This document shows positions 1 through 34,814 of a stretch of 64,000 nt of DNA, piece after piece. The notes beneath the pieces were generated by a model that worked only from the letters and a program-made list of their open reading frames with translations, searched no databases and had not been told where the DNA came from. Made by a program: the position numbers and the translations under genes. Location: contig CADCXA010000004.1 in the NCBI GenBank assembly GCA_902806565.1, forward strand, positions 1-64,000, given 5' to 3'. The first letter of the stretch is position 1, and every line of letters starts with the position of its first letter. Source of the DNA: Hypoxylon rubiginosum. Taxonomy: Eukaryota > Ascomycota > Sordariomycetes > Xylariales > Hypoxylaceae.

Positions 1-1480
1 AACTTAATTAAATTCTTTTTAATTAATAAAAATTTAATAAAAATTAAATTAATAAATACTTATTTAAAAGGAATTGAAATACTTTTTTTTAAATATAAAA
101 CATACTGTTTATTAAAATTAAACCTTAATAAAATAAATATATAAAAACTAAATTAAAAGAAATTAATTTTATAAAATTAAAAGTAAATAAAACTAAGTTA
201 ATAAATATTAAAAAATATATAAAATATATAAAAACTAAACTAATATAAATCTTAATTATAAATATTAATATAAAACAAATTAACTTAAAAAAACCAAACA
301 TTATTATTATTAATTTAGAAATTATTAAAATATAAAAAATAAAATTAATAAATAATACTTTAATAAAAGATAATTTAATAATAATTAAGTTATTAAAATA
401 TAATATTAAAAAAAGTTATTTTATAGTTATTTTATTATTAGAAATTAATATAAAATATAATTAACCGTTGTTGTAATTTTATATATTAAATAAAAATAAG
501 TTATTAATATTAAAAATAATGTTTTAAAATATTAATATAATAATTATTTAAATATTATAATAAAGTATAATTTTAATATTTTATAATTAATAAAATATTA
601 TAAATAATAATAAATATAAAGAATATATTAAAAATATATTAATTAATATAAATATTTAATTAATATAAATATTTAATTAATATTAAAACATTATATATAA
701 TAAAAATAATATTTAAAGAAAAACTGTTTTAATGTAATATTTAAATAAGTTATATAATAAATTTAAGTTATATATAACTTAAGGTATTATATAATATTTT
801 AACATTTTAATATTTTAACATTTTAATATTTTAATTTTATTATAATATATTATTAATATTTAAATAATAAAACTGTTAAAAATAAACTAATAAAAAAAAA
901 CTTATAAATTATTATTATAAAATCTTTTATATAAAATAAATATATTTTTATATAAAATAAAAATAATAAAGTTAAAATTTTATATAATAATAATAATAAA
1001 AAATTAAAAAAGTTTTTATATATATAAAAGAAATATTTTTAAAGAATAATTATAAATTTTAAAAATATTATTAATTATTAACTTTAAGTATATTTTAAAA
1101 TTATTAAATATATATATAATATTTTATAATTAAAATTTTTATTATAAATATATATATATTTTAAAAAAAAAAGTTAAATTAAAATATATATAATTATAAT
1201 ATAAAAAACTAAAAAATAAATTAAATATTTTAATAAAAAAGAATTTTTATTATATTATATAAAAAAATAAATATATTTTTAGTTAGTTAAATATAAATAT
1301 ATTTATAAATATAAATACTTAAAAAAATTATAATAAAAAAATATAAAAATTTTTTAAAGTTATTATAAAATTTCTTTTTATATTATAAATTAAAAACTGG
1401 TTTTATATTATTTTAAGTTTTTTTTTTAATTGGTTCTTATTTTTTTTTTATAAAATATATATAAACTAGTATATAACGTA
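1..1480 (+). repeat. Left copy of a long direct repeat
   Basis: This stretch aligns by eye with 25,898-27,125 in the same orientation, over nearly its whole length. It contains about 300 bp (roughly 555-850) that the right copy lacks. The copy probably starts before the window, since the right copy's match begins exactly at base 1. Where the copies differ near their right ends, this one mostly has A or T where the other keeps G or C (for example around 1,450-1,475), as expected if both were mutated by RIP and this one more strongly. Confidence 0.8.
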
Positions 1481-13400: not shown

Positions 13401-16400
13401 TTACTTATTTTAATATAAACGATATAAATAACATAGATTAAATAAGGGATGATATTAAATTTAATAAAATCAAAATAACCGATTAAATAATTTCTTAAAT
13501 AATTAAAATAAATAAAAAAAAATTAAAATTTATATTAAAAAGTAATAAATATATAATAACGCGGATTTCGTTATAATCGTAATAAGCCGCGTTATACTAT
13601 AACTTAAACTTATTTTATTTAGTTTTTATTTTTTTATAAATTTTATTAATTATAAATAAAACCACTATATATTTAACTTTTATAATAACTAAATATATAA
13701 TAAACTTTTTAAGGTTTAAAAACTTAACTACTTTAATATTAAAGTTTAAAAGTATATTTTAAAATAATATTTAAAAGGTAAATATATTGTTAAATAAATT
13801 CTTATAATAGTTTTCTTTAAATAAAAATTAAACCTTATAATTTTATTATAAATAAAATTATATAAATATGTTAAATATAAGAACCATATAAATATAAAAA
13901 TAAAAAAAAGGATATAAATAAAACAATATAAAATCAAAAAGAAACAAAAGGTTAAAAATTAAATATTTATAAAATAAATAAATAATTACCGAAATATTAT
14001 AAAAATTATAAAACTGGAGAATATATTAAATATATAACGGCTATTTTCACGATAATAATATCCTTTAAAATAAAAATTAATAAGTTTTTTTTACTAGGTA
14101 TAATAAAAGGATATAAATAATTAAATATATATTTAAATTTACGTTCCGTGTATTAATTTTCTTTTTTTTCTTTTATATATATAAGTAATTTATATGTTAT
14201 TATTTTTTACTAAGTAAATATAATAAATATAAAAGTGGTTAATAGTTACTTATTATATAATAGTTTATTATTTATATAAATACTTAAAAATATTAAAATA
14301 TATAATAATCCTTATAAATAACATCCCTTTTTATAATTAAATTTCTTTTTATAACTAAAAAAATAATTAAAATTAAAATTAAAATAATATCTAATATAAA
14401 ATAAGCTTAAGTAAATTAAAACAATATATAGGATATATTAATATTAAAAACATATATAATACACTTTTAAAGTTATTTTATTTTAAATAAATATTAATAT
14501 TATTTAATTTATTTATTTTAAACTAAATAATAAATATATTTATTTTATTATATGGCTTTTTTATTTAATAAAAATAGTTTAAGTTACAGATTATATAATT
14601 TCTTTATATTTTTACGTTTATATTAGCTTTTTATATATAACCTTTAAATAAAAGAAGGTTAAATTTTTATATTTTATAATTATATTATATTTTTAGCTTA
14701 AAATACTTTTTTTAGTTATTAAAAATTAATATTATAGGTATTATATTTAATTTACTTATATATATTATATTTTATTATATTTTAAAATATAGTAAAGTAT
14801 TTTATAAATATATAAAAAATATTATAATTTCTTTTTTTTTTAACGACTATATTTATTATAAAAAATAAACTATTTTATTTTCTTTTAAATTCTTTAAATT
14901 TTTTATTAGATTATATAAGTTATTTTTTACTGGTGTTTAAATGTTATTTAATAAATAATAATAACCTAAGAATATAAAATTATATAAATAATAAAAATAT
15001 TAGTTAATAATTATATTAGTTATAATAATAATATAATTAATAAGTTATAAATTAAAATTAAACTATTATTAAGATTTTAGTTTATATTATTAAAATAAAA
15101 ATATAAATCTATTGGTAATTTTATTATTTAAATGAAATTATTAGCTTGCTGGTAATAAAAGAAATAATAGTAAAAAAGAAATACCTTTTAATATTTATAG
15201 TTTAATATTTTATTAGTTTTTTAATTATTTTTTTTATTTTATAATTAGTATTATAATATATATTTAAATATTAAAATGTGGTAAATAAAAAATATATTAT
15301 AGTAATTTTATTAAATATATAATATAATATTAAAACCTTAATAATTTAATATATATTATTTTAAAAAAAAGCTAGTAATATAGTTTTATATACCTAGGTT
15401 TTTATTTATATAAAAGGTAGTAAACAATAAATAAAAGTCCAAAAAAACAAAGTTTAAATGATAAAATATAACGTATATATACGTAAAAATTCATTCCTAA
15501 ATATATTATTAATATTTTATTTTCGCTTTTTAATATTATAATTATTTATTTAATAAGATATTTCCTTGGTTTTATATAATAAATATCAGCTAATAAACAA
15601 AAAATATAACATGTAAATAATAAAAAGAAAAAAGATAAATATATATATTTTTAAATTTTAAGTTTATTAAAAAATAATAATAAAACATAAAATAAAAAAA
15701 AAAAATAATATATTAATTTTTACCGGTTATAACTTATAATATATTTTTATGTTAAAAAAATATTTTCAGGCAAGTAATATTATAAGTACTACTATTTTTT
15801 TAAAACTAATAAAATTAAAAAAATATTTAAATAAATAAAAAATACCTTTTATTATAAAATAATAATAAATTAATTAAAAAGCTATATTTAAATAAGAAAA
15901 AAAGCCTTAGTTATTATATTATTTACTGTTAAATAAGGATATAAAAATAAGAAACAGTTATTATAAAATGTTATAAATTATAACATTATAATAAAAAAAT
16001 ACTATAAGAACTTATTAATATAAAAAAGAAAAACCCCTTTAAAAAAAAAGGTGTATTTTTCTAAATAATATACGTTTTACTAGATATAAAATATTTTAAT
16101 ATTTCTTTTTTATTAGTTTAAATAAACTTATTTAATTTATTATTTCTTAAACATTTTATTTTTTAATAATATATAACTAGTTAAATATATGTTTTATTAT
16201 ATTATAACTTTAAAAAATTTACTTATTTACTAAGTAACTATTTTAAAATACCAATTAATAATATCTTAATTATATATTAATACCATTTTCACTTTTAAAA
16301 AGAAATACTTATATTAAAATTTTTCTTTAATATATTATTAATTAAATATATTAATATGTTTTATATAAAAACCTTTTAAAACTTTACCAACTATTTAAAT

Positions 16401-19400
16401 TATTTTATTAAGTTATAAACTTAAATTTTATAAGTTAGTATATTAAAGTTTTTTTTATATTTTATATAAAACGTGATTTTAAAAAATATTACTGTGTTTA
16501 ATTATTAAACCGTGTTTATTATATATATTATAAAGTTTTATACTTATATTTCTTTATTAATAACTAAATTTTAAAAAGTATAAAATATAATTAATATTAA
16601 AAATAAATATTACCAGCTAATTATTATTAATTTTATATTAAATATAAAATTAAAAATAGATATTATATATTTAAAGACTTTTTTATTATAAAGCTTTAAA
16701 ATATATACTGGATTTACTTTTACGTGTTAATATAAAGTGGCTAAATTATATTTTACAGGTTTTATAATAATATATATTTAATATTATTAAAGTTATAAAA
16801 ACTTATAATATAAATATAAAAAAAGTTAAATAGTTTATTTTATATAATATAATAATATACTAAGATACTTTTTTTTTACATTATATATAAAGAGTATAGT
16901 TACGGTAAAAATATATTATTTATTATTTTTTTTATTTTATTTTATATATAAAAGTATATTAAATTTAAAAGGAGATTTATATTACTACTTATTTTAATAA
17001 ACATATAACTAGATTAGATTTTTTTACGAAAAAGAATTCATTAAAAAAGCCTAGAAGTTAATATTTATATATAAGATTAAATTAAACTATTAATAGTTTA
17101 AAAGTTATATAACTTAAATAATTATTATAAAAAATAACATTTAAAATTAATACTTACCTAGGTATATAGTTTAATTTAAACTTAAAGTAAGCTAAATATT
17201 TTATAGAAATAAAGTGTTATATAAAAAAGTATTTATAATAAAAAATTAATATATGAAAAATAATTAATTTTAATGTTTTATTATTTAATAATATAATATA
17301 AAAAAGTGTTTATAATATTTTATTATTTAATACTAAAATTCTTACTTTTATTTAACTTTTTTTCTTTTATAAAGGTTTTTTTTTATAATTATTTAAACTA
17401 TTATTTATATATATTAAATTCGATATTTAATTATCCTTTAATTAAAAATCTTTTTTTACATTTAAATAATAATAATAATAAATAAAAACCTGATATTTTT
17501 TTATAATATTTTATATATATTTAAGATTTCTTTTTTTTTTTATTTAGGTATTTTTATAAGTTATATAAAAAAGCAACTATAAAAACTTAATAATAAAAGT
17601 TTATAATGTTATTATAATATTTAATATATAAAAGGATTTTATTTTTTTAAAAAAACTTTAATATTATATAACTTAAGTTTTATAGGCACTTTAATTTACT
17701 TTAAAACATTATATTTTCTTTTTATTTAAAATATTAAACTTTTACCGGTGGAAAATAAAAATAGTTATTAAAAAAATAACTGGTAATTTAATCCATTTCT
17801 AGCCACTAAAAATATTAATAATTATAATACTATATTTATAAAAACTTAAATTAAAATAGAAACCCGATTTATTAATTTATTAATTTTATAAAATAATAAG
17901 TTAAATTATATATTTAAATGTGGGGATTAAGATATTAAAATTATAGTTATTTTAAATTTTTTATCTTTAGGAACCTAATTATAAAATAACGAACTAACAG
18001 TATTTAATATTAAGGTTTTTTATAAAGATTTATAGTTAGTTACTTAATAATTAAATGTTTATAAAAATAACATTAAACTTTTAAAAAAAACCGGATTAAA
18101 AGTTATATTATTAAATTAAGTGATAATAAAAACAACTTTTTTTAACATGATCTTTTTTTTTTAATTTATTAAAAAATATTTAAAATATATATATATAGTT
18201 TTAAATATTATTTTAAATTCACCAAATAAAATATTTTAATATAGTAAATATAAAAACTTAAGATTTTATTATTCTTTTTTTATTATAATATAAAAAATTA
18301 TATATTTATATTATTTATAATAAAACTAAATGTAATAATATTAAGTTTAACTTTAAAACCTAAAAATATATTAAGTTAATTATTTAACTTTTTTATTAAA
18401 TTTAAATATATTATTAAAAATATAATAAATTAATTTTTTATTACTTAAAAAAAATAAGTAAATTTATTATCACCGCTTTTATATTTTAAAGTTATAATAA
18501 AATATATAATTTAATTGTTAGCTTTTTCTTTTTAATGTTTTTTATAACTAATAATATTAAAAAATATATTTTAAGAAATACTATAAAAAATATTAAGTAT
18601 TAAAATAAGAATTTTTTTAGTTTTAATTTACCTTAATAACTTTAATCTAAAAATAATATTATAAAAAATAAGAGTGTTATTAAGCTTTATAATTATACTT
18701 TGGATATAATTTATTATTAATTAAAAAATTCCCTTTTTAAATATAAATTTTATAAAAGATTTTTAAATTATTTTTTTTATATCTACCTTTTTATTTTTAT
18801 ATGGTTTTAACTTCACTTTTAGCTTTATATCATTATAAGTGGGGAACTTTTTAATCTTTTTATTATTAAGCTTTTTAAGCTTTTTGTTATTATTTTTTTA
18901 TAATTTTATTATTTTATTACTTTTTAAGTTTAATTATTTTATATTATTATAAAACTTTTTTTTATTAATAAACTTAAGGTACTTTAAAAATAAAGCTTAA
19001 TAGTATATATATTTTATATTTTTAAATTTAATGGCTTTGATTTTAATAAATTCCTTTTTTTTAAAAGGTGGATAATTTATTTATTTTTTAATAATATTAA
19101 TAATAATAAGAATTATAATTAAAGTTTTTTTAATATTAATATTAAAATACTTATTAATAAAATAAATATTATTTTCTTTTAATCTATTAATATAAAAGTT
19201 TTTTTTAACTATTAACTTTATATACTATTAATAAAAAACCACTTTTTTAACAGTTAAACTATTAATTATATTATTAAATAATAAATTAAATTATATATTA
19301 TCTTTTAAATTAATTAATAAATATATAAAGTTTATATTTTAGTTTAATTCTTTTTTATTTATTTATATAAAAAGTAAAAATGGTTATTTAAATGGAAAAT

Positions 19401-19654
19401 TTATTAATATAAAATTAACCTAAAAAACTACTTATAAAAAAACGTTATAATTAAATATATTTAAAAATAAAATCATTAACCTAGTTAATTAAGTTAATAT
19501 TAACTATTATAATATAATTTATATTTATTAATGTTAGTTAATATTTAATATAAAACTTTTATTTTATATAGTAAATTATTTATATTTTAAATAGCTTTTT
19601 TAACTTTAAAAATTAAGGTATTTTAATTAACTTATTAAATTAAAATCTCTTTAT

Positions 19655-19935
19655 AAAAAGTGGGTTAACCTTATTTACTAGGTTATATAATTTTTTAATA
19701 AAAGTTAAATTAATCTCTTTAAATATTTTTATAGAAAAAAGGTTAACTTTATTTAATAGATTATATAATCTATTAATAAAAAGTAAATTAATTTTTTTTA
19801 AATTAATTTTATTTAATAAATTTTATGATTTTTTAATAAAAACTAAGTTAATTACCTTTTATATTTTTATAAAAATAAAATTAATTTTATTTATTAGATT
19901 ATATAGTTAACTATAAAATAAAAACTTTATTTATC
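19655..19935. repeat. Degenerate tandem repeat, about 78 bp period
   Basis: About four imperfect units inside the AT block, each with a GGTTAAC/AATTAAT-like start, a TTATTTA(C/A)TAG core and a (T)TTAATAAAAA stretch. Unit starts fall near 19,663, 19,741, 19,803 and 19,880; the third is shortened. The units differ mainly by transitions, so an older tandem array was probably mutated by RIP. Confidence 0.55.
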
Positions 19936-22900
19936 TTAAAAAAGTCACGGTTTAAAAAAACTTTATAATAAATAAAAAAAGTTATTTTTATAGTTATAAT
20001 AAGAATAAAATATATATTTATACTTTTTTAAATATTAAAGTTTAAATATGTTATAAAAACCATTAATAATTATATTTTAAATTAAAAATATAATTTTAAA
20101 TAAAGTAAACTATATATTTTATTAGTAATTAAAAATATAGTAAAAAATTTATTATAAAAATTTTTAAACTTTTAAAAAACTATATATAATAGCTTGTTTT
20201 TAAAAATAATATATAAGGTGATAAAAAAAACATTAGCTGGTTTTTATGTTACTAATAAAAAATATATTTAAAAAATGTTAAAATATTATTAAAATACTTT
20301 AAAATAACTTATAAAAATTAAAACTAGCTAATATATATTATAAAATTTAATAAAAATAAAATAATATAAAAGATTAATAATATAATTAAATAATAAAACT
20401 TATATAAAAATTATTAATAACTTGGAAAAATATAAATAACTAAAAGTATAATTATATTTAAATGTAAAAAAAAAAGAAACTTAAAGTAAGAAATTAAAAT
20501 AGTTGGTTATTAATAAAAAAATAATTATAATAAAAAATAAAAACTAGGTGGTTAAACTTTTATATTACTTATATAATATATAAATAAACATTAATATTAA
20601 AATATATAATATATAAAATTAATATTTTTATTTATAAACATTTATTTAAATATTATTTAAATAAACTTATAATTAAAATAATCGGTTTCATATAAATTAA
20701 AACTTTTTATTAATATAAATATTAATTATATTACTTTTAAAATTAATATAATATATGTTATTTACAATCGGTTAAATAAGCTATAAAAATATAATTAATA
20801 TAAAAGTTATAATATAAATCTTTTTTATAACTAAAGTTTATTTAAAGGTAAAACCTTAAAAAATAGGTTTAAGATAAGTATTATATATTTTTCTATAGTA
20901 TTTTAAGTAAATAATTTTATAAAAAAAAGTGAAATTAAAATATAATAATTATATATTTAAATGGAAGAATATTGGTTTTTTTATACCTAATAAGCCTTTA
21001 TTTTATTTTATTTAAAAATATATATAGTTTATAACCTTTATTATTAATATATTTTACTTATAGTTAAATATGTTTTTATTTTAAGTTTTTATTATAAATA
21101 TTAAGTAAGTTAAGTTGTTTTCCTTAGTTTTTTTTAAAATATATAAAACTATTAACTTTTTCTTTAAATTAATATAAATAATAATATATTATATAGTTAA
21201 TATATATTTATATATTTTTATATAATCTTTTATTTTAGGTTTTATTTAAAGAATAAAGTTAGTTGGTTTTTTTATATATATTATAGTTAATATTAAAATT
21301 AACTTTAAAACTAAAGCTAGAATTATAGTTAAGGTTAAAATTAAAACTAAAATTAATATTAAAATAAATATTATTATATATTAATAAGTAAAATTTAATT
21401 AATATTTTATTATAATAATATTAATTTATAAAACCATATTAAAAATTATTATTATTATAATAATAATTAATATATATATTATTTAATATATTAGTATTTT
21501 ACTTTAATATTATAAACCTAATTATATATTTTTACTATAAGTTATAGTTATTTATATATTACTTATAATGTTAACTTCTAGTATATAAATAACTATAAAT
21601 TTAAATATATAACATTAAAAAATTCTTTAATTATATTAATATAATTTCTATTATTTAAATTTTAACATATAGTTATTTTATTAACCGATAATAAAAAAGG
21701 TTTAAATTAACTATTTTAATATTTACTTTTTTACGGCTTATAGTAAAAAAGGAGGTTTAATAAGTTAATTATAACATTATACTTTGGATAAAAAAAAAAA
21801 AAAACACATATATAAATAATATAAGTTATATTTTACACTTTTTTATAAATTATATATTATTTAATTAATTACACTAATATTTAATTATAAATAGTTAATT
21901 TACATATTAATAAAAAGTTTATTATTTTTTTTTAAAAAAGAAACAAATTATATATTTTAAAATATATTTTATATTAAATTATTATATATTATTTTAATTG
22001 TTAAATGTATAATTTAACGCCATTTATATATATAAATAATTTATAATAATTTTATTACCATTTATTTATTTGGATTAAACTATTTATATTATTAAATATA
22101 TATATATATATATATTAAATAAGTTATATCAATCTTTTTAAACTATATTAAAAGCTAAAAAAAAATATTAGTTATATTTATATTATATAAAATAATAAGT
22201 TACATTTATAAATAATTAATAACTTTATTTTTAAACGTTATACTAGCTTGAAACTAATGTAATAAAATAATATAATAATGTGTTTTATAAATTATATTAA
22301 TTTTTATAATATTAATATTTAATTTTTAATATATATAAAGTTATATATATTTTAGTTTTATATAAGCTTTTTAAATAAATATATTTTCATATTAACTTTT
22401 AAAATAATATGTTTTTTATTAATAATAATTATTAAAAGATACTATATATTTTAGCTTATAAAGAATATTTTTTATTTTATTTATTTAAATATTTTTATTT
22501 ATATAGTTATATAAAATAAGCACTTCTTATTTATTTTAAAAAATTATTAATAATTCCTTTTAATTTCTTTATATTAATAACTAAAAATATCTTTATTAAA
22601 TTTATTAAAATAACATATTATGTTATTAAGTTAAATAATAATAAAATAAGGATTTACTTGAAAAAACTTATTTTTTTAAGAAAAAGTAATCTAATAATTC
22701 TAAATAATCCAAGTTAATACTTCTTTAACGTTAAAAAATAATAACCTTATTATTTTATTTATAATAATTAAAAACATAATTTTTAAAATAATTTTTATTA
22801 AATATTTTATAACAGTTTTTATAATAACTAATATTATAATTTTTATCTTTTTTTTTATTATAGCTTATATTATAAACCTTATTTTTATTTAATTAACAGC

Positions 22901-25897
22901 TTTTACTATTAAATTTATTATAAATTTTAATAAACACTTTTAAATACTTAGTATAATAATTTTAATATCTTGATTTATAAATTACTATTAATTTAAACAA
23001 ATTAATTTTAAAATATAAATACCTTAACTTTTCCCTTATATTTAAATATAGATTTTTAAGATATATAAAATCTATTATTTTTACATCTAAAAACAAAATA
23101 AGTGTTTATAGTAATGTTATTATTAAGTAGAATTATAAGAATATTTATAAGGTGGTTATTAATAATAAAAATAATAAAAACCTAGTTTATTAAAATTTTT
23201 TATATATTATTAAAATTAAGTATATATATAATCCTTAAATTTAAAATATGTTAATATTAAAATGGGCCGAGAAGTTAATTAACTAAGTATTTCTATTTAT
23301 AATATATTATAATAATAGTAATTTTACCTTTAAAAATTTATAATTATATTATAATTAAAATATATTTTAAATATAAATAAAAATTAATAACTTTTTAAAA
23401 AATACCATTTAAAGTTATATTATTTTATTTAATAATAACCTATTATAAAAATATATAAATAAGAATTTATTATTTAATAAAAAACTTTTTAATAATTTTA
23501 TATATATATTATTTATTTTTAAGTTAAATATTATATTTAAATATATTATAAAAATAATATATAATTAAAAACTAAATTAATTTTTTATAAAAATATCAAA
23601 GAAACTTATATTATAATGAAAATAACTTATAAAAATAATTAATAATAAATTAAATATATAATTTAAAACATTTTAAGTTTTTAAAAAAGTGGTAATTTTT
23701 TACTTAATTATAGAATATAAATCTAATATAAGGAATATATTTATAAAAATAAATTAATATTTAAGTAACTTTATAATATTTATATTAATAAATGTTATAG
23801 TGTTTTCTTAATATTATAACGTATTTAGTTTTATAATTAATTAGAAATATATAATATTTATATTTGTTTAATTAAATTAATAAATTAAAAAGTTTTATAT
23901 AAAAGAGATTAAATGTTTATATATAGTTAATTTTAATTAATATATTATTTTTAGAAAGACTTTTAATAATATTTATATTTAAAATAAGGGGAATAGATTT
24001 TATTAATTTTTAAAATATTTTAATAAATGGTGTGAAAGAAAGTTAAATAAAATACTTAAAAAGTAACTTATATTACTAGTATTAAAACTGTAAAAATTAT
24101 ATTGGTTTTTATAAGTTTTAAAAATATAATTTACTTAGATAATATCTAATATTATAACCTTATTAACTTAAATTTAATATATATTATAATTATTTTTTTA
24201 TATATTTTTTTTATAATTAACATAGTTATTTTTATAGCTTTTTAAAATATTAAATTATTTTATACCTTTTTTATTATTAGTTTAATAAGCTTTATAGCTA
24301 TATTACTCCCTTTCTTTTTTATAGTAATAATAAATAACTTTATAATATTTAATAAAATTATTTTCTATAAACCTTATATAATAAAATTAGTAATTACTAT
24401 AACCGCTAATAATATTATTTTTTTTTATACCTTATATATAATAATTATAGCTTATTTTATAACCTTTTATAATACCTTATTTTATAACTTTTATATAATA
24501 AATAAAACCAACTTATTAACTTTAAATAATATTATTTTTTATAATATTTTAAAGCTAAATTTAATAGATTTTATAACTTTTATATTAAATATTAATACCA
24601 TAATTTAAATTAATATAAGATAATATACATTTATTTATATTATTAATTTATTTATTTACCTATAAATATTACTTTTAATTTAATTATAACACTTATAATA
24701 AACTATTAATAAAATTTTATATTAATTAATAAAGTATTTATATATATAATATTTTAAATTCCCCTTTTTTTACTTAAATTAAATTAACCTAAAAAAAAAC
24801 CTAATTTTTATAAAAAGTTACTTAAAATAAGGTTTTATAAAAGAATAATAAAGGTAAATTAAATAATTAAAACTAATAAAATTAATATAAAATTAAAATA
24901 AGTGTGGTTGATTTTATAATAAAAAAAAACTTTTTAATAAAAATATAAAAAGGGGATTAAAAAATTAATAACTTTAAAATAAAATATTTTATATCTTTTA
25001 TATTTATAATAAGAAAAAAACCATTCTTAATAAAAATTATATTTTTTTTTTATTAATAGTTCTTATTTAAATTAAAATCCCGGTTAATTACCAGTATTTT
25101 AAATATTACTTTTATTCTTTTAAACTTATTAATATATTTATCATAATTTTTAAAAATTTAAATAATATTATTACTCTCTCTTTTTTTAATATAGCTTTTA
25201 TTATATAATGGATTATAAAAATCTAACAAATTTATATTTTACTTATAATAATTAAAGTTTTTTATTTATTATTATATTTATTTAATATATAAAAAAAATT
25301 ATAGATAATAAAAAAAAATTTATAATAAAGGTTAAAATTACCTATCTAGCTTATAAATTAAAAGTAAAAAAAGAAAAAGATTTTAATGATTTATTTATAT
25401 ATATTTTAGAAAATATATAAAAGAATATATTTGTTAAAAAAGTTTTTTTTATAAAATATATTTTATAATATATAATTAAATCTTATTATATATATTAAAT
25501 TAATAAGAAGTAAAAAACAAGCTTAAAGGAAAATATTACTACTTATTAAAAAAAAAGTAAAATTGTTTTATAATAAATTAATTATTTTTTTAAATATTTA
25601 AACATTAAATTGTTTTTAAAGTAATTAAAGGTATTTACTTTTTATGTTAAAAATTAAAATAAAGTAAGAACTTATTTAAATTATAAAATTTATTAAAAAT
25701 TTAAAAAAAGAAAATAAAATATAAAATTAAATAAAGAAATTATTAGTGTAAACATTAAAAGTGTTTATAAAAAGCTATATAATAAAAAGAAAAAAATAAA
25801 ATTAAAATTATTTTTAAAAAAAGAAATTAATAATTAGTGGTTTTAAGTAAATAAATTAAAATTAAATAAGTTTAAGGTTATTGTTTTATTTAAAAAA

Positions 25898-27125
25898 AAC
25901 TTAATTAAATTTTTTTTAATTGATAAAAATTTGGTGGAAGTTAAATTAATAAGTATTTATTTAACAGAAATTAAATAAAAAAAAGGATTAAATATAAAAC
26001 TTATTATTTATTAAGATTAAGTTTTAATAAAATAAATATATAAAGGCTAAGTTAAAAAAGATTAATTTTATAAAATTAAAAGTAAAAGAAATTAGGTTAA
26101 TAAATATTAAAAAATATATAAAATATATAAAAACTAAATTAATAAAAGTCCTAATTATAAATATTAATATAAAAGAAATTAATTTAGAAAAAATAAATAT
26201 TATTATTATTAACTTAGAAATTATTAAAATATAAGAAATAAAATTAATAAATAATATTTTAATAAAAAGTAGTTTAATAATAATTAAATTATTAAAATAT
26301 AATATAAAAAGAAGTTATTTTATAATTATTTTATCGCTGGAAATTAATATAAAATATAATTAATTACTGTTATAATCTTGTATATTAAATAAAGATAAGT
26401 TATTAATATTAAAAATAATGCTTTAAAATATTAATATAATAGTTATTTAAATATATTACTAATATTTAAATAATAAAATTATTAAAAATAATGTTAATAA
26501 AAAATAAGCTAGCTAAAAAAGCTTATAAACCATTATTATAAAATCTTTTATATAAAATAAATATATTTTTATATAAAGTAAAAACAGTGAAGTTAAGATT
26601 TTATATAATAATAATAAAAAAAATTAAAAAGGTTTTTATATATATAAAAAGAATATTTTTAAAAAATAATTATAAACCTTAAGAATATTATTAACCATTA
26701 ATTTTAAATATAACTTAAAGTTATTAAATATATATATAACATTTTATAACTAAAAACTTTATTATAAATATATATATATTTTAAAAAAGAAGGTTAAATT
26801 AAAACATATATAATTATAATATAAAAAACTAAAAAATAAATTAGATATTTTAATAAAAAAAAGATAAATTTTATATATTATATAAGAAAATAAGTATATT
26901 TTTAACTGGTTAAATATAAATATACTTATAGATATAAATACCTAAAAAAGTTATAATAAAAAAGATATAAAAATTTTTTAAAACTATTATAAGATTTTTT
27001 TCTTATATTATAAATTAAAAAAAAAAATTAATTTACTAAATTAAGAACTGGTTTTATATTGTTTTATGTTTTTTTTTTAATTGGTTTTTTTTTTTTTTTT
27101 ATAAAGTGTGTATAGGCCAGTATGT
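25898..27125 (+). repeat. Right copy of the long direct repeat
   Basis: Second, better preserved copy of the sequence at 1-1,480, separated from it by about 24.4 kb. It ends in a long T run (about 27,070-27,100) followed by a short G/C-retaining tail just before the composition changes. Long terminal repeats of a large nested element, or two insertions of the same family, are both possible. The left limits of both copies are unresolved, so I do not name a class. Confidence 0.8.
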
Positions 27126-27128
27126 GGT

Positions 27129-27288
27129 TAAAGTTTTACTTTCTTATTTGGGTGGCGGGCTCCTATAGAAAAAAAACACGACATAATAACCCTCATAAAC
27201 TCGGGCATTAAGGTTTTATTTTCCTATTTAAGCGGCGGGCTCCCATAGAAAAAAAACACGACACAATAACCCTCGTAAACTCGGGCAC
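27129..27288 (+). repeat. Two tandem 80 bp units at the AT/GC boundary
   Basis: Two adjacent 80 bp units (27,129-27,208 and 27,209-27,288) share the GGCGGGCTCC core, the run AGAAAAAAAACACGAC and the TAAACTCGGGCA end, with a few transitions between them. They lie immediately after the long direct repeat and only 27 bp before the first gene's ATG, so they form most of that gene's proximal promoter. Confidence 0.85.
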
Positions 27289-27315
27289 ATGAAAAAGTGG
27301 TAATTTAAGTTCGCG

Positions 27316-28901
27316 ATGGACTATCTGCCGTTGTTCAAGCCGCAGCTCCCGGTGCCTAGTAGTGATATACGACAAAGCCTAAAGAGAGAGCTCGTGATTA
27401 TGCACCCCGGATATACACCACAACTAAGACTTCTTACTCTTCGTGCTTCGGATTACGGGTCCCTGGAATATGGCATCTTGTATTACGCCTGCTGCATTGT
27501 CGCTGGAAACGTCTGGAAGCCAGACGAGGGACGCAATGGACTTAATACCGGCCCATTCTTCTCAAAAGATCGTCTTGGACAGGACAAGCTGATACTGCCA
27601 GAAAGCAATAGGTATCTTGTCCCGGCAGGGCGATACTATTTTCATGTCCCAGGATTCACCATCAGTAGGGCCACCTCCCTTCCCTATTTTCGTCTGCACA
27701 ATACTAACTTCACATCACAGAGGAACCCTACCCGATCGTCCCCAGTTTCCGTGATTGGCTCCCCCCGACCACATTGCCTAAGCCATGGGAAAGCATACGA
27801 ATTAAACCTCCTGCGACGAAGGACGTTGTTCCTAATGCTCAGAGCAGCAACAACACATCCCTTTCGACTCCTTACTCTCACGGCGTCCTCCCTAATAACC
27901 TCCGGGACTTAAGCGCCTACGACAGCAACCGAACAGCCTGCGTTGTGACGTTCGATATGATATCTCTCGAAGAGGGTCATGTCATACCGAAGAGTGCTAA
28001 TAGGTGGTCAACTGCCAACAACATGTCCCAATTCAAGCCTGAGGATGGCTTAAGATATAAAAGATTCATCGACCATCCATGCAATAAAATATTTCTTCGC
28101 AAAGATGTCCACACTCTCTATAACAACAACTACATGATCATAGTACCGAAGCCTAACTCGAAACATCCTGGAACTTATCGTCTAGGAACACATGTGTGGA
28201 CTCCACCGAACATGTCAGAAGATTCAGACATACAGGTTTTCGCCCTCTACCAAAACCGTCCCTGCTATCCAATTCCGCATGTACCAGTGGAGTTTTGGTT
28301 CGTTCGCTTCGCATGGGCTATCTTTACCTACTACACGATCAATATACTAGATGACGACAACGCCGACAAGGAATTCGCCGTCTGTTACATTGTCAACGAG
28401 GAAAACGGCGACAGATTCTACAACCACAAGACAGTACTCGGCTGTGAAATTGACGAACTAGGCGCGAAAGCCACCGGCGTTAAGGGTAAGAAACGAGACA
28501 GCAGCCAGATCACTCAGGCCACTCAGATTGCCAAAAAACGCCGCCAGCTCCACTACTCCTACCGTACCGGAGAGATGGAATTGGAATCCGATGACGACGG
28601 ATTCGAGTCTGGCGACCACGGTGGCTTTAGTGACTACTACTCGGAAGAGACAGATGACTCTTCAGACGACTGCGATCGCCATGACGACCACGAAGATGCG
28701 GAGATAAAATCCGAACCTTCTTCTCAGCATACGGTGCCAGAGCTCTCGAAATCCGTACTTAGCGTTGGCGAGAGTTATCTAAGCTCCGACCATGGCGATC
28801 AAGATCCACTGAAACATTCATCGCTCCCTCTACTCATGCATACGAATGGGAAGATTCCACATGATCATCTCGGGCCCGATTTCACTAGTCACAGGGACTA
28901 A
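27316..28901 (+). CDS. Fungal HNH endonuclease-domain protein
   Basis: Predicted 509-residue protein from two exons, 27,316-27,664 and 27,721-28,901. The 56 bp intron has a TACTAAC branch site and a CACAG acceptor, and restores the frame between two overlapping open frames. The N-terminal part (a HPGY element, then a helical region ending in YYFHVPG, then YPIVPSFRDW) and the following HNH-like domain match a large family of fungal proteins of unknown role. Candidate metal and catalytic positions are His203 (EEGHVIPK), Asn238 and His247 (LRKDVH). The C-terminal 150 residues are acidic and disordered. The family is expanded in Pezizomycotina genomes; no substrate is established. The gene has normal base composition although it lies next to a RIP-degraded block, and its promoter consists of the 80 bp repeats. 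Confidence 0.85.
27665..27720 (+). other. Intron of the HNH-domain gene
   Basis: GTAGGG donor, TACTAAC branch site at 27,703-27,709 and CACAG acceptor. Removing it joins frame 1 to frame 3 and yields the conserved YPIVPSFRDW segment directly after the first exon. Confidence 0.85.
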
Positions 28902-28972
28902 ACAGATTGCATGATAGTAAATATAACGGCGTTTTGGCTCAGGCGTATACGAATTGGAACATGGATGATTGA

Positions 28973-29052
28973 ACAAGGACAGGTTGACACAAGGACAGGT
29001 TCACACAAGGACAGGTTAGAACAAGGATAGGTTAGAATTGGGATAGGTTAGA
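28973..29052 (+). repeat. 16 bp tandem repeat, five units
   Basis: Units of the form ACAAGGACAGGTT plus three variable bases, repeated five times, with the last units carrying GGATAGG instead of GGACAGG (C-to-T). It begins about 70 bp after the HNH gene stop codon. Confidence 0.85.
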
Positions 29053-29203
29053 ACAAGATACCAGATTGTCGCTCACTATATTATCGCTTATTACGTTGTT
29101 ATTTGCTCTAGTGTCGCTCATTATAGATTAAAAAATACCAATTTCAAAAGTACTAAACGTATTTACGTAATCATATGCGCCCGTCAAGTCTCCTAAAAGT
29201 CGG

Positions 29204-29294
29204 GGTTATTGTGGTGACTCTCTGAGAGGGGCGCCCTCTAGTTTATTAGCGCGCCCGATAGGAAAAGGCCCAATTGGCAATCACCATAATAGCC
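29204..29294. repeat. Imperfect inverted repeat
   Basis: GGTTATTGTGGTGA at 29,204-29,217 pairs with TCACCATAATAGCC at 29,281-29,294 (12 of 14 positions). The loop includes a GC-rich GGGGCGCCCTC segment. It could be a small hairpin or a miniature-element remnant; no flanking target duplication was recognised. Confidence 0.45.
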
Positions 29295-29725
29295 AATTCC
29301 TTCAATTTCTACGTAATAATTCAAAATTGATTCTGGCTTCCAAACTTTGCACCCAGGGTTAATCGATAGAGCAAAATGAGACAAAAATTCCAATACCGGT
29401 TACATGTCATATGGACACCTGGTTTCAATTGAATATTAAGTTGAAGGTTGGCATCCAGTGGCGAAAGTTGGCTTCAAAGGGTGTCACGTGGCCCCCTTTG
29501 GCCAAAACATTCGGAATTACCAACCTTTATATCCAAATATCTTAACAACCAGGCTCTACACCAGGTTAAAACCTCTATCATTAGAAAGCTCTTAGTTAAC
29601 TGAAACCTTTAAACCAGGTTGCACCTTTTGCCAAAATTAGATGGCGTAAATATAAAGGTATTGGTATATAAGAGCCTTGGAATTCAATTGAAATATCTGT
29701 ACCTAGGATATCCGGCTTATTTACA

Positions 29726-29768
29726 CACTAACAAATTTATAGCATATTTGTACGGATAGTTGTTAGTG
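29726..29768. promoter_or_regulatory. Hairpin upstream of the Spok-like gene
   Basis: Perfect 9 bp arms CACTAACAA (29,726-29,734) and TTGTTAGTG (29,760-29,768) lie about 250 bp before the predicted start of the next gene. Function unknown; it may be a binding site or a chance hairpin. Confidence 0.4.
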
Positions 29769-29839
29769 CGGGGGTTTCGGCGCTAAATATGTACCAACTA
29801 AAATACAACGTAAATAAATAATAACAAAACGTTTACACC

Positions 29840-29882
29840 TTAGGCGACCAAACGTTACTTGTGTTTTAGGCGACCAAACGTT
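29840..29882 (+). promoter_or_regulatory. 17 bp direct repeat in the Spok-like promoter
   Basis: TTAGGCGACCAAACGTT occurs twice without mismatch, at 29,840-29,856 and 29,866-29,882, starting 174 bp before the predicted ATG. Two identical sites this close in a fungal promoter suggest a dimeric or paired transcription factor site, but no factor can be named. Confidence 0.5.
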
Positions 29883-30013
29883 CGGGGCAGTACTGCACAT
29901 ATAATTATTTATCTATTTAACGTAGCCATTGCCGTACGTACCGTGTTCTCGTCCCTATTTACCCACGTATACTTTTGTTTCATCACGATCAACGTGATTC
30001 ATACTTTGCCGTA

Positions 30014-32725
30014 ATGGAACATAATCGCAAAAAACAAGCCCATCCCCAAACCAAGCCCGAACTCCAACAAGAGAATGAACGCCAACTCGATAAACAAATC
30101 CAACATCTTGAACGCAAATTGGAAGAGGCTGAACGCAAATTAGAAGAGGCTAAACGAAAACAAGAAGAGGGTCAACGCCAACGTGAGGAGTCTGAACGCA
30201 AATTAGAAGAGGCTAAACGAAAACAAGAAGAGAGTCGACGCCAACGTGAGGAGGCCGAACGAAAACAAGAAGAGAGTCGACGCCAACGTCAGGAGGCCGA
30301 ACGAAAACAAGAAGAGAGTCGACGCCAACGTCAGGAGGCCGAACGAAAACAAGAAGAGAGTCGACGCCAACGTCAGGAGGCCGAACGAAAACAAGAAGAG
30401 AGTCGACGCCAACGTGAGGAGTCTGAACGCAAATTGGAAGAGGCTAAACGAAAACAAGAAGAGAGTCGACGCCAACGTGAGGAGGCCGAACACCAATACA
30501 AAGACCACTTGAACCAGACTCTTTGGCCTTACCTTCTTTCTTGCCACTCGTATAGCCTTTCTATACCAGTAGTCACTGATCCTTCCGCAACTACAGGAAG
30601 CCTTGTGGCAAATCCGCGAGAAAGATACTACCCTAAGCGCATTGTAAAGTGGGATAGCTTCATGTCAGACCAACATAAGACATGGAAGAAAGTCCAACAG
30701 AGTCAATCTTTCTTGTCTGCAGCTTCCCATCCATCTAAAAAGGTAGTCGAAGGATTCAAATCCTACTTTCGACGCATCAGATGTGAGACAGCCCTTCGGA
30801 CGTTTGAGTGGGTTGCTGTTGAGGCCAAAGTCAGGATGCTGGTCGAAGAAGCGAATAATGAGAAGATGATGCAAGACAGCTTTGGACTCCACGGAAAAAT
30901 AGAGTTTCAGAGTCACGGGAACTTTAAGGGTGGTCCTAAACAAGTCGATGGATCCGAATCCGAAGCCACAGCAGAACATTCCGAACAATTCTGCATATAC
31001 GGGCGCGAAGGTAGCCCCCAGAGAATCATTTATGCTATAGAGTATAAGCTTCCGCATAAGTTGCCAAAGGACGCGATCATAGCAGCATTGGATGGCTCCG
31101 AGATACAACCAGATCGGGACATCATCAACCGTAGTGGCGACACCTTCGAGTTTTACTCAAAAGCGATTACAACTGCTGCTATCACGCGGGCATACTCTTC
31201 TATGTGTAAGAAGGGTACGTCATACGGTTACGTATGTACAGGAGAGGCATTTATCTTCCTGCATATTCCTCAAGATGACCCCACCACTGTATATTACTCC
31301 CCGCACGTGCCAGAACACGACGTTAAGGATGATGACCCAGATAGGCTGCGTTACACTGCTATCTCGCAGGTATTTGCCTTTGTCCTTCGCGCGATTCAAG
31401 CACCAGTGGTGCCGCAGAGCTGGTTTACGTCGAAGTCCAATGACAAACGCAGTAACATCTGGCCTGAGAAGGACCCGTTAAGCTGGCGCAGAAGCCGAAG
31501 GGACTGGGGAGATAACCACCACAGCTCCGAGACAGAGAACAGCTCCGAGATAGAGAACAGCTCCGAGATAGAGAACAGCTCCGAGATAGAGAACGGCTCC
31601 GAGATAGAGAACAGCTCCGAGATAGAGAACAGCTCCGAGATAGAGAACGGCTCCGAGATAGAGCAAAGATCACCATATATCCCCCCCAAAGGAAGAAAGA
31701 CTAGGGAGAACAAGACATCGCCATATAATACACTATCGAATGCTCAGAAATGTCAACCACAAGCCGATAATCCTACACGCGGAAATAATGATAGTGATCA
31801 TAGCAGTGGCAAGGCATCAGCACCCTTACCTCCCAGGCTTGGTCAAGGCACTTTTACTCAGTTGAACAAGCCCGCCTCGGAGAGCAAAGGAGGCCAAAAG
31901 CAAGGTCAAAGCCGTGGAGACCATGATGCAAAGCAGCACAGGCAATCGAAGCCATCCATAGAGAGCCGGGAATACTGCACCCAGGAGTGCCTCGTCGGCC
32001 TTGCCTATGGTGGCTCTATGGATAAGGAATGTCCTAACTTCACCGATCATGGGCAACAGCACCTTGAACCGTTAGCGTTCCGGAATCTTATACGCGACCA
32101 GCTCGCCCATGACCGAGGCCCGGACGCCGACGCAACGCCGCTTCATCTATCTGGAGCAGTCGGGTCGCTGTTCAAGGTCCGCCTATCTGCTTATGGCTAT
32201 ACTCTTGTTGCTAAGGGCGTGATCGGAGATTACTCTGAGCGCCTGGATCACGAGATTCAGGTATACGACCGCCTCCGCCCCATTCAGGGTGTATATGTCC
32301 CCGTCTGCCTGGGCAAAGTCGACCTGGTGCTGCCGTACTATTATGACGGCAATAAGCACAACCATTTCTTGTTTCTTAGCTGGGCTGGCCAGCCCTTGTC
32401 CCTGATAGCTAAGACAGTAGCGAATAATGCCTCTATCATTGACGATATCGCTACTGCATTCCGCGCAGTGCACGCGCAACAGATTCTCCACTGCGACGGA
32501 GCACCGCGGAACATACTATACGAGCCGCGCAGAGGCAAACCTATGGTTATCGACTTCGAGCGAGCGAACATTTACAGTCACCGAAAGGTCGGTCCCGTCG
32601 ATCGAATCCGAAGAACGAGCGGTACACAAAAGGGGAAAAGAGTGATTAGTTTTGAAAAAGAGATAAGGCTGGTGAAGATAAACGTTCAACGTTATCTCAG
32701 TGTAGCTCATACCAGGATTTCGTAA
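30014..32725 (+). CDS. Spok-like protein: coiled coil, nuclease, kinase
   Basis: Intronless 903-residue protein starting at ATG 30,014; the open frame extends a little upstream without an ATG. In order: a charged coiled coil with 14-residue repeats (about residues 30-165); a PD-(D/E)XK-type nuclease region with candidate catalytic Glu343 and Lys345 (IEYKLPHKL); a disordered linker with eight SSEIEN-type hexapeptides (about 504-551); the cluster Cys655-x3-Cys659-x13-Cys673; and a kinase-like domain with HCDGAPRN (Asp828, Asn833) and DFE (Asp847). This order and the exact cysteine spacing match the Podospora Spok meiotic drivers, where one protein both kills sister spores (nuclease region) and protects (cysteine and kinase region). 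All these motifs are present and the frame is open, so it looks functional. Driver activity here is inference; similar genes occur in many fungi without tested function. Confidence 0.82.
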   Translation: MEHNRKKQAHPQTKPELQQENERQLDKQIQHLERKLEEAERKLEEAKRKQEEGQRQREESERKLEEAKRKQEESRRQREEAERKQEESRRQRQEAERKQEESRRQRQEAERKQEESRRQRQEAERKQEESRRQREESERKLEEAKRKQEESRRQREEAEHQYKDHLNQTLWPYLLSCHSYSLSIPVVTDPSATTGSLVANPRERYYPKRIVKWDSFMSDQHKTWKKVQQSQSFLSAASHPSKKVVEGFKSYFRRIRCETALRTFEWVAVEAKVRMLVEEANNEKMMQDSFGLHGKIEFQSHGNFKGGPKQVDGSESEATAEHSEQFCIYGREGSPQRIIYAIEYKLPHKLPKDAIIAALDGSEIQPDRDIINRSGDTFEFYSKAITTAAITRAYSSMCKKGTSYGYVCTGEAFIFLHIPQDDPTTVYYSPHVPEHDVKDDDPDRLRYTAISQVFAFVLRAIQAPVVPQSWFTSKSNDKRSNIWPEKDPLSWRRSRRDWGDNHHSSETENSSEIENSSEIENSSEIENGSEIENSSEIENSSEIENGSEIEQRSPYIPPKGRKTRENKTSPYNTLSNAQKCQPQADNPTRGNNDSDHSSGKASAPLPPRLGQGTFTQLNKPASESKGGQKQGQSRGDHDAKQHRQSKPSIESREYCTQECLVGLAYGGSMDKECPNFTDHGQQHLEPLAFRNLIRDQLAHDRGPDADATPLHLSGAVGSLFKVRLSAYGYTLVAKGVIGDYSERLDHEIQVYDRLRPIQGVYVPVCLGKVDLVLPYYYDGNKHNHFLFLSWAGQPLSLIAKTVANNASIIDDIATAFRAVHAQQILHCDGAPRNILYEPRRGKPMVIDFERANIYSHRKVGPVDRIRRTSGTQKGKRVISFEKEIRLVKINVQRYLSVAHTRIS
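30126..30490 (+). repeat. 42 bp in-frame minisatellite in the coiled coil
   Basis: Tandem units of 42 bp encode 14-residue heptad-pair repeats of the type EEAERKQEESRRQR. The central copies (about 30,250-30,420) are nearly identical at the DNA level, and outer copies carry ESERKL or AKRKQ variants. The unit is a multiple of three and of the heptad, so copy-number change would keep both frame and coiled coil. Confidence 0.9.
31523..31666 (+). repeat. 18 bp in-frame minisatellite (SSEIEN)8
   Basis: Eight 18 bp units (AGCTCCGAGATAGAGAAC type) encode (S/G)SE(I/T)EN hexapeptides in the linker between the nuclease and kinase regions. The first unit has T for I, and two units and the last begin with G; the last ends in Q. 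Confidence 0.92.
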
Positions 32726-32909
32726 TTTGTATCGTACTAGCCATAGGTTATTTTAACTAATCAGAAAGAAGCTTGCTTTACCCCTCCCTATTAAATTATA
32801 ACACCTAGTTTAAGCGAAAAACGTAAATTTTACTAAAATTATATTATATAAAATTATAAAATTAATTAATTTAAAACCAATAAGTTTATAATTATAATTA
32901 AAAATAAAT

Positions 32910-32965
32910 ATAATATTAATATATAATATAATATTAATATATAATATAATATTAATATATAATAT
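32910..32965. repeat. 18 bp tandem repeat in the AT block
   Basis: The unit ATAATATTAATATATAAT is repeated about three times in a row. Simple-sequence origin is likely. Confidence 0.7.
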
Positions 32966-33290
32966 AAAATATAATATAATATATATTATTATATTAATTT
33001 TTATATATATTTAATAAATTTATTAAAAATTTATATTTATAAATAACTTTAATATAATAATTTAAATATTAATAAATAAAACTATATTAAATTTAATAAA
33101 TAATATATTATTTAATATATTTAAACGTAAAATTATTAAATAATTATTAAAATTTTATATTTATAATTTTATTAAATAAACCTTATATTTTAATTAAATA
33201 AACTATAATTTTTAATTATATGTTTATTATTATATATAATAAATTTAACTTTTAAATATATATTTAATTAATTATTTTAATTATTTTTTT

Positions 33291-33369
33291 ATTTTTTATT
33301 TTTTATTTTTTATTTTTTATTTTTTATTTTTTATTTTTTATTTTTTATTTTTTATTTTTTATTTTTTAT
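33291..33369. repeat. (ATTTTTT)n microsatellite, about 11 units
   Basis: An uninterrupted heptamer ATTTTTT repeated about eleven times, with no mismatch visible inside the array. Confidence 0.95.
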
Positions 33370-34028
33370 TATATATGTTTATATATATATATATATATAA
33401 ACTATAATAATAATATTATAAAGAAATTTAATAATATATAAAATTTAAAATATAAATTTTTATTTAAAAATAATATTATTTTATTATATATATTTATAAT
33501 GAATAAATAATTAAATATTATAATTAATTTTTTATTTTTTTATTATTAAAATTGTATATAAAGTTTGAAATTTTTTATATTTAAATTTATAAATATAATT
33601 AAATAAATAAGCGTAACTTATTAAATTTATTAAATAATTTAAATTTTATTAAAATAAATTTAATATTATTTATATGGTATTATATATATATAATTATATA
33701 TATATAATTAATTTTATATATATTTTCTTTTTTTATTATTTTATTTTTATATTTTATTTTATTTATATTATATATTATTTATTTATTAGTAAATATTTTT
33801 TTATTTTAATATATATAATTAGTTTTATTATTTTTTAAGTTTTATGAATTAATTATTTATATATATTTAATATAATAAGTTATTTTATATTTTAAATAAA
33901 AAGTTTATTATATATATATTTTTTATATATAAAAATAATAATATTAAAAATAAATTATAAATTTAATAAATATATAAACTATATATAAAATAAATATAAT
34001 TTATATATATATTAATAATTTTATAATA

Positions 34029-34522
34029 TATTTTATTAAAAATATAATTACTTATTAATAACTTATATATTATTATATATATATAATTATATATATATAA
34101 TTAATTTTATATATATATATTTTTTTTTATTATTATTTTTAATAAATAATTTCTTTTTAATAATTAATTAAATTTTATTAGTTTATTTTTATATTTTATT
34201 TTTTTTATATTATATATTATTTATTTATTAATAAATACTTTATATTTTTAATATATTTAATTATATAATTATTAATTTAAATAAATTAAAATATAAAAAA
34301 AATAAATAATAAAAATAATTTATATTAAAAAAATTAAATAATATATAATATAAATAAAATGAAATATAAAAATAAATTAATAAAACTTAATTAATTATTA
34401 AAAAAAAAAAATTTACTAAAAATAATAAATAAATAAAATATATATAAAATTAATTATATATATATAATTATATATATATAATAATATAAGTTACTTATAA
34501 ATAATTATATTTTTAATAATAT
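34029..34522. repeat. Large palindrome with ~200 bp arms
   Basis: The left arm from about 34,029 to 34,230 is matched in reverse complement by about 34,325-34,522, including the paired TATATATATAATTATATATA core and the TAATTAATTAA(A/G)TTTTATTA segment. A related third copy lies at about 33,676-33,800 in the orientation of the left arm. The structure suggests an inverted pair of a small repeat or a foldback element; long TA runs make arm limits approximate. Confidence 0.75.
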
Positions 34523-34814
34523 ATATAAATTAAAAAAATAATTAAAATTTTTTATTTATTTAAATAATATATTTTTATAAAAGAAATATAATATAATAAT
34601 TTTTATAAACTTTAATAATATATTATTTTAACTGGTAAAAAACCTTAATTTTTAATCGATAGCTACCACGTGACGTCCGTGCGTTAGCCCTACGCTAAAA
34701 TGGTGCCTTACACACTAAGGCCTAACCTCACGGTGGCTCAAAGAAACAAAACACGTTTTCCTCATCACTACAAAAATCCAAAACGTCCAAATTCTTAACC
34801 AACCCGCAACCACA

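What the first reader, a model, noticed from the sequence alone, without database searches (positions are those of the whole stretch)
27126..32740. Spok-type killer candidate in a GC island between RIP-degraded blocks
The 903-residue protein has the three-part order of Podospora Spok meiotic drivers: coiled coil, PD-(D/E)XK nuclease with EYK (Glu343, Lys345), then Cys-x3-Cys-x13-Cys (655, 659, 673) and a kinase-like domain (Asp828, Asn833, Asp847). The cysteine spacing is exactly that reported as needed for resistance in Spok3, as I recall it. The frame is intact though most neighbours are broken. The island is the only normal-composition DNA between two repeat blocks, as expected for cargo of a large element. 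A single-gene killer and antidote active in a new species would be a real discovery.
Basis: partly seen in the sequence, partly recalled or inferred. Interest (0 to 1): 0.86.

Follow-up and report, generated by a model that had tools for sequence, protein, structure and literature searches.

The report
Spok homologue with degenerate killer half
A wood-dwelling fungus carries a relative of the spore-killing Spok genes whose poison half looks damaged while its antidote half is well kept, so it may protect against such killers rather than kill.

Summary
It is a Spok-family homologue: domain order, Cys cluster and kinase triad align with 161 database relatives, and the model has a kinase fold. A near-identical protein is known from Hypoxylon rubiginosum.

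The reading 'active killer' is weakened. The PD-motif Asp (D in 163 of 170 aligned sequences) is Glu324, and QxxxY reads R392...S396. Against its sister copy on contig C10, domain 1+nuclease has a neutral ratio of replacements (dN/dS 1.05) and the Cys+kinase core is constrained (0.30). That contrast is carried mainly by domain 1 and weakens if the C-terminal tail is counted. I judge a resistance-only Spok most likely (0.45); a divergent active killer or a dying gene remain possible.

Seven other Spok-like frames of the genome keep all twelve residues checked. All lie on contigs C10 and C60, 2.2% of the assembly, with 20 of 25 HNH_2 and 3 of 3 DUF3435 matches. They are the better killer candidates.

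The parts
30014..32725 (+). Spok-family gene, 903 aa, single open frame
30014..30493 (+). N-terminal coiled-coil-like repeat region, nested 21/42/63/84-bp periods (residues 1-160)
   Evidence: tandem repeats; sequence
30494..30913 (+). domain 1 (residues 161-300), function unknown; fastest evolving part
30914..31423 (+). PD-(D/E)XK-type nuclease domain (residues 301-470), by homology to SPOK domain 2
   Evidence: order of strands and helices in the model
30983..30985 (+). codon 324, Glu at the column of the PD-motif Asp (D in 163 of 170)
31040..31048 (+). E343-Y-K345, kept
31187..31201 (+). QxxxY motif, here R392...S396 (Q in 166, Y in 162 of 170)
31521..31663 (+). 18-bp x 7.9 tandem repeat in the linker (SSEIEN-type units), not present in the C10 copy
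31976..32050 (+). Cys cluster C655, C659, C673 and H679
32111..32593 (+). kinase-like domain (residues 700-860) with D828, N833, D847
   Evidence: kinase fold
27708..28901 (+). neighbouring 397-aa frame, HNH endonuclease-like (HNH_2 20.8 bits, cut-off 21); 91% identical relative on C60
27128..27287 (.). two tandem 80-bp units of a repeat dispersed over many contigs
1..27120 (.). RIP-type AT block, about 10% GC, reaching the contig end; no TTAGGG/CCCTAA in the first 5 kb
32750..34630 (.). short AT block, about 4% GC

Best explanation
It is a Spok-family gene whose killer half (domain 1 plus nuclease) has lost constraint and part of its catalytic site, while the core of the antidote half (Cys cluster plus kinase) is kept by selection. 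In Podospora, killing needs the nuclease, and resistance needs the kinase and Cys cluster (shown there, not here). I infer that the protein no longer damages DNA effectively but can still neutralise a related Spok toxin through its kinase, so that spores or nuclei carrying it survive a Spok driver: a resistance-only Spok, comparable with the Spok2 allele of P. anserina strain A or with antidote-only wtf genes. Shown here: homology, open frame, motif changes, constraint on the kinase core. Inferred: loss of killing, kept resistance, expression. Which driver it would protect against is open; the sister copy C10:360216-362840 and the full-motif copies on C10 and C60 are candidates.
For: E324, R392 and S396 stand where D, Q and Y are conserved in 163, 166 and 162 of 170 sequences; E at 324 occurs only here and in P0001; C655, C659, C673, H679, D828, N833, D847 are all kept. 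Against C10:360216-362840: domain 1+nuclease (161-470) dN 0.083, dS 0.080, 56 N: 16 S, what neutrality predicts (p=1.0); Cys+kinase (641-860) dN 0.022, dS 0.075, 11: 11, fewer replacements than neutral (p=0.011); halves differ, Fisher p=0.016. Similar dS in both halves argues against gene conversion. Departures at columns at least 90% conserved: 20 of 76 in the nuclease, 4 of 73 in Cys+kinase. Distance relative to the family mean: 3.2 domain 1, 2.4 nuclease, 1.4 kinase. P0001 carries the same E, R and S, which speaks against a sequencing error. In PMC6660238 (passages) a nuclease point mutant lost killing and kept resistance.
Against: Asp to Glu keeps the charge, and E343 and K345 remain, so residual nuclease activity is possible. 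The dN/dS contrast depends on boundaries that I set: nuclease alone is 0.78 (25 N: 10 S) and does not differ significantly from the kinase core (p=0.16); with the tail 861-903 included the antidote half is 28: 16 (dN/dS 0.52) and the contrast is p=0.09; domain 1 carries it (p=0.007). One pair, NG86 counts, not corrected for six pairs. dN/dS near 1 can also mix constraint and positive selection; domain 1 alone is 1.46. The C10 sister shares the fast front half and the Ser for Tyr, so most of the acceleration predates the window-specific changes. A row with intact motifs, P0094, also has a raised nuclease/kinase ratio (1.44; window 1.79). Eight of 170 rows depart more often in the nuclease, and by the departure ratio the window is only 13th of 170. 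No expression data.
Confidence: 0.45

Rival explanations
1. One reading: an active single-gene killer and antidote with a divergent but working nuclease.
For: Open frame; E343 and K345 kept; domain order; a homologue only 33-34% identical to Spok1/2 still killed in P. anserina (PMC4022471, passages); the nuclease alone has dN/dS 0.78, not clearly different from the kinase core.
Against: E324, R392 and S396 at positions nearly invariant in the family; domain 1 and nuclease at 3.2 and 2.4 times the family's mean distance, kinase 1.4.
Confidence: 0.22
2. A dying Spok copy: no function left, the frame happens still to be open.
For: It sits at the edge of a RIP-degraded block; interrupted Spok-like pieces occur on C10, C25, C31 and C60; Spok-like genes are often pseudogenes (PMC4022471, passages); the C-terminal tail (861-903) has 18 N: 6 S against C10.
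Against: 903 codons without a stop; kinase core below the neutral N:S ratio (p=0.011); no RIP signature in the CDS; P0001 differs by one substitution between residue 161 and its differing C-terminal end.
Confidence: 0.2
3. The front half has been turned to another task (for instance DNA or target binding without cleavage) under positive selection, with the kinase kept.
For: Domain 1 dN/dS 1.46; the three-member clade shares the fast front half.
Against: The excess over 1 was not tested as significant; no partner or new motif was found.
Confidence: 0.1

Closest known systems
SPOK1-4 of the Podospora anserina complex (proxies here: P0118, P0121)
   Same: Coiled coil, domain 1, nuclease, linker, Cys cluster and kinase in the same order; C-x3-C-x13-C; kinase D, N, D.
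   Different: 43% identical to P0118 over 635 aligned residues (36% domain 1, 48% nuclease, 53% kinase); three nuclease-motif residues changed; on a long branch of its own. SPOK1-4 themselves were not retrieved by name.
Hypoxylon rubiginosum F4820DRAFT_462990 (P0001)
   Same: 654 of 663 aligned residues beyond 160 identical; same E324, R392, S396.
   Different: 728 aa as annotated; repeat region, linker stretch 489-552 and C-terminal end differ, perhaps through predicted introns (not checked).
Spok2 allele of P. anserina strain A (PMC4022471, PMC6660238, passages)
   Same: Natural Spok with changes in the nuclease domain and, as reported, resistance without killing.
   Different: There one substitution and a two-residue insertion with tested function; here changed motif positions in two sequences and no functional test.
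Antidote-only wtf suppressors of S. pombe such as wtf18-2 (PMC6283613, passages)
   Same: Same logic: a killer-family member that keeps only the antidote.
   Different: Unrelated proteins; wtf drivers encode poison and antidote as two proteins of one gene, Spoks as two domains of one protein.
FuSpoks on Fusarium accessory chromosomes (PMC12693581, sections 15 and 17)
   Same: Many Spok copies in a small genome fraction, some in Starships.
   Different: Another fungal order; C10 and C60 are not shown to be accessory chromosomes.

Membership tests
Spok family (broad: Ascomycota homologues) | full-length homology over domains 1-3 | tested here: met
   E 1e-165 for the best hit after P0001; 38-45% identity to 97 of the 98 other rows of A1, 98% to P0001
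Spok family (broad: Ascomycota homologues) | N-terminal coiled coil of variable repeat length | tested here: met
   repeat of charged heptad-like units; no coiled-coil predictor was run; P0118 is modelled there as one long helix
Spok family (broad: Ascomycota homologues) | C-x3-C-x13-C-x5-H upstream of the kinase | tested here: met
   C655, C659, C673, H679; the last His of the printed motif (x7) is Leu687 here and that column varies in the alignment
Spok family (broad: Ascomycota homologues) | kinase catalytic D, N and DFG-type D, kinase fold | tested here: met
Active SPOK killer | complete PD-(D/E)XK site plus QxxxY | tested here: not met
   E324, R392, S396; E343 and K345 kept
Active SPOK killer | PD-(D/E)XK fold of domain 2 | tested here: inconclusive
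   Element order matches the P0118 model; kinases filled the fold-search lists, so domain 2 was not compared
Active SPOK killer | killing and resistance in crosses or yeast | not testable with these tools
   needs experiments
Podospora SPOKs proper | groups with Podospora sequences in a tree | tested here: not met
   window, P0001 and the C10 copy form their own long branch, apart from P0118, P0121 and P0128; deeper placement unsure, long branches meet; whether it falls in clade II of PMC6660238 was not tested
Starship cargo | inside an element with a DUF3435 captain | tested here: inconclusive
   no DUF3435 match on C4, three matches on C10 and C60; C4 is a 213-kb fragment and element ends were not sought

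The most novel reading that the evidence does not exclude
Resistance-only Spoks arise repeatedly: killers decay nuclease-first and leave kinase-only protectors kept by selection. Among 164 aligned Spok-type sequences, 11 (about nine lineages) have a substituted nuclease triad, against one or two with a substituted kinase triad. In this genome such a protector on C4 would face an accessory, Starship-linked compartment (C10 and C60) loaded with full-motif Spoks and HNH nucleases.
Probability: 0.27. Interest if true: 0.72.

Novelty: new variant of a known kind. Interest (0 to 1): 0.48.

Why it matters
The 2019 Spok paper remarks on the lack of resistant strains in Podospora, with one exception (PMC6660238, passage). 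A natural Spok with a damaged killer half and a constrained antidote core would show that such resistance evolves and persists, and would offer a direct test of how the kinase domain protects. The survey also points to C10 and C60 as the place to look for active Spok drive in a xylarialean fungus.

Tried and rejected
Gene conversion as the reason for the better-kept kinase core: not favoured, dS is similar in both halves. RIP as cause of the nuclease changes: not favoured; the codon pair GAA/GAC is a transversion, CGG/CAG carries the G in the window, and the CDS has no RIP signature. Deep position from FastTree: not relied on; the mixture model on 47 rows puts the trio inside the family with unstarred support. 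Core-gene test for C10 and C60: Mito_carr 0 of 126 matches, p=0.058, not decisive; MFS_1 scored only 9 of 493 candidates, useless. Rfam match in the last 2 kb of C10: none. Contig ends: no TTAGGG/CCCTAA in the sampled ends of C4, C60 and the left end of C10; five dispersed TTAGGG in the last 2 kb of C10, no array. Solved structures by sequence: apart from coiled-coil, designed and two bacterial toxin chains, the window protein matched kinases; among the 60 of 549 profile matches shown, kinases only. Pfam on the front half: nothing. In the rows shown of the fold searches no nuclease appears; kinases fill them, so this says nothing about domain 2.

Full report
Observation. The nearest database protein is P0001 of Hypoxylon rubiginosum; beyond residue 160, 654 of 663 aligned residues are identical, with one substitution (position 434) before a differing C-terminal end. 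An aldo/keto reductase frame of the window is 99% identical over 90% to an H. rubiginosum protein, while a second H. rubiginosum protein is 89%, so the host is probably that species or near it. The window is the first 64 kb of contig C4 (212,730 bp) of a 48.3-Mb, 70-contig assembly.

The nuclease site. In the alignment of 170 sequences (nine from this genome, 161 from the database) the PD-motif column is D in 163, E in 2 (window and P0001), G in 2, N in 1, gap in 2. The QxxxY Gln is Q in 166 and the Tyr is Y in 162. The window has E324, R392, S396. E343, K345 and the seven Cys/His/kinase positions are kept. In both models the first position lies just before a strand, the E-Y-K at the end of the next strand, and the QxxxY positions in a later helix, as expected of this superfamily (recalled). 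PMC6660238 ties the nuclease lysine to killing and the kinase and cysteines to resistance (passages).

Selection. The closest copy in the genome, C10:360216-362840(-), 874 aa, keeps Asp and Gln and has Ser at the Tyr column. Between the two, domain 1+nuclease (161-470) shows 56 replacement to 16 silent differences, the neutral expectation, and the Cys+kinase core (641-860) 11 to 11, fewer replacements than neutral (p=0.011); the halves differ (Fisher p=0.016). Five other paralogue pairs show no such contrast, but four of them have few differences. On recounting, the contrast is carried by domain 1 (32:6 against 11:11, p=0.007); the nuclease alone (25:10) is not significantly different (p=0.16), and with the tail 861-903 the contrast is p=0.09. 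Relative to the family mean distance the window stands at 3.2 (domain 1), 2.4 (nuclease) and 1.4 (kinase) on 48 chosen rows; P0094, with intact motifs, has 1.8 and 1.25 for nuclease and kinase. On 164 rows the window has the second highest nuclease/kinase ratio of those ranked, after P0093. By plain departures at conserved columns eight of 170 rows exceed it in the nuclease (six divergent frames of this genome, P0112 and P0113), and it is 13th by departure ratio. The C10 copy shares most of the acceleration. So constraint on the kinase core and loss of motif residues are the firm parts; relaxed selection on the nuclease is suggested, not shown.

A wider pattern. Of 164 sequences (the six divergent frames of this genome left out), 11 have a substituted D/E/K triad without gaps, in nine separate places of the FastTree; three more have gaps there. 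The kinase triad departs in 4 of 164: P0122 by substitution, P0120 reads L and then gaps, P0080 and P0123 have gaps. Nine lineages (P0001 and P0113 left out as near-copies) have a higher nuclease/kinase distance ratio than 150 others (medians 1.28 and 1.01; p=0.001), which is partly circular because the lesion columns lie in the nuclease. Gene models were not checked, and several changes (E to K, D to N) could be RIP. It fits nuclease-first decay but does not prove it.

Genome setting. Searching the genome (30 candidates scored, lower bounds) gave nine Spok-like frames over 600 aa: seven on C10 (679 kb), one on C60 (397 kb) and the window's. Seven of the nine have all twelve checked residues, C10:360216 lacks one, the window three. 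Interrupted pieces lie on C10, C25, C31 and C60. C10 and C60 are 2.23% of the assembly and hold 20 of 25 HNH_2 matches, 32 of 42 matches of the window's neighbouring HNH-like gene, itself included, and 3 of 3 DUF3435 matches. These are exon-level matches: the two on C10 (594,225-595,539) are probably one gene, about 5 kb from the full-motif Spok C10:586932-589277, and the one on C60 has seven stops. DUF3435 as the Starship captain domain is recalled. The contigs were chosen after seeing the counts, so the small binomial values are descriptive. That they are accessory chromosomes or Starships is a hypothesis: element ends, empty sites and strain data were not seen, and the Mito_carr test is inconclusive.

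Literature. Spok homologues in Xylariales: PMC6660238 (passages). Fusarium Spoks enriched on accessory chromosomes, and two of six toxic in yeast as kinase mutants: PMC12693581 (outline, sections 15 and 17, passages). DNA damage by SPOK1: PMC9972908 (passages). Resistance without killing in strain A: PMC4022471 (passages). Antidote-only wtf suppressors: PMC6283613 (passages) and the review PMC12941216 (passages). A search for Spok with Hypoxylon rubiginosum returned no paper. Searches for Spok in Xylariales or Hypoxylon with Starships, antidote-only and nuclease loss (14 of 15, 10 of 25 and 8 of 12 papers listed) showed, beyond the strain A allele, no title or abstract start that describes a resistance-only Spok homologue; PMC10763133 (Anthostomella pinea) holds one match to 'spok' that I did not read. 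The library lacks most subscription journals.

Verdict. Most likely a resistance-only Spok; confidence 0.45.

Noticed in passing
G000 contigs C10 (679 kb) and C60 (397 kb): Eight of nine Spok-like frames over 600 aa, 20 of 25 HNH_2 matches and 3 of 3 DUF3435 matches of the genome lie on these two contigs: a candidate accessory or Starship-rich compartment.
   Followed up: partly
C10:573961-576243, 528500-530824, 419126-421339; C60:264710-266971: Four nearly identical Spok-like copies are free of stops in a genome with RIP-type AT blocks, although RIP should hit such duplicates (recalled).
   Followed up: no
C31:2237-3670 (in L058): Spok-like pieces with many stops in 6% GC DNA near a contig end: RIP-type decay of a Spok copy.
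   Followed up: no
P0112 and P0113 (Sporothrix epigloea), P0055, P0093, P0031, P0095, P0108, P0152: Other Spok-type proteins with a substituted nuclease triad and intact kinase residues.
   Followed up: partly
window 27128-27287: Two tandem copies of an 80-bp repeat found on many contigs; perhaps part of a transposable element.
   Followed up: no
window 44637-46959: NB-ARC frame followed by a TPR frame: a likely fungal NLR-type gene.
   Followed up: no
window 42838-43575: Polysaccharide deacetylase frame.
   Followed up: no
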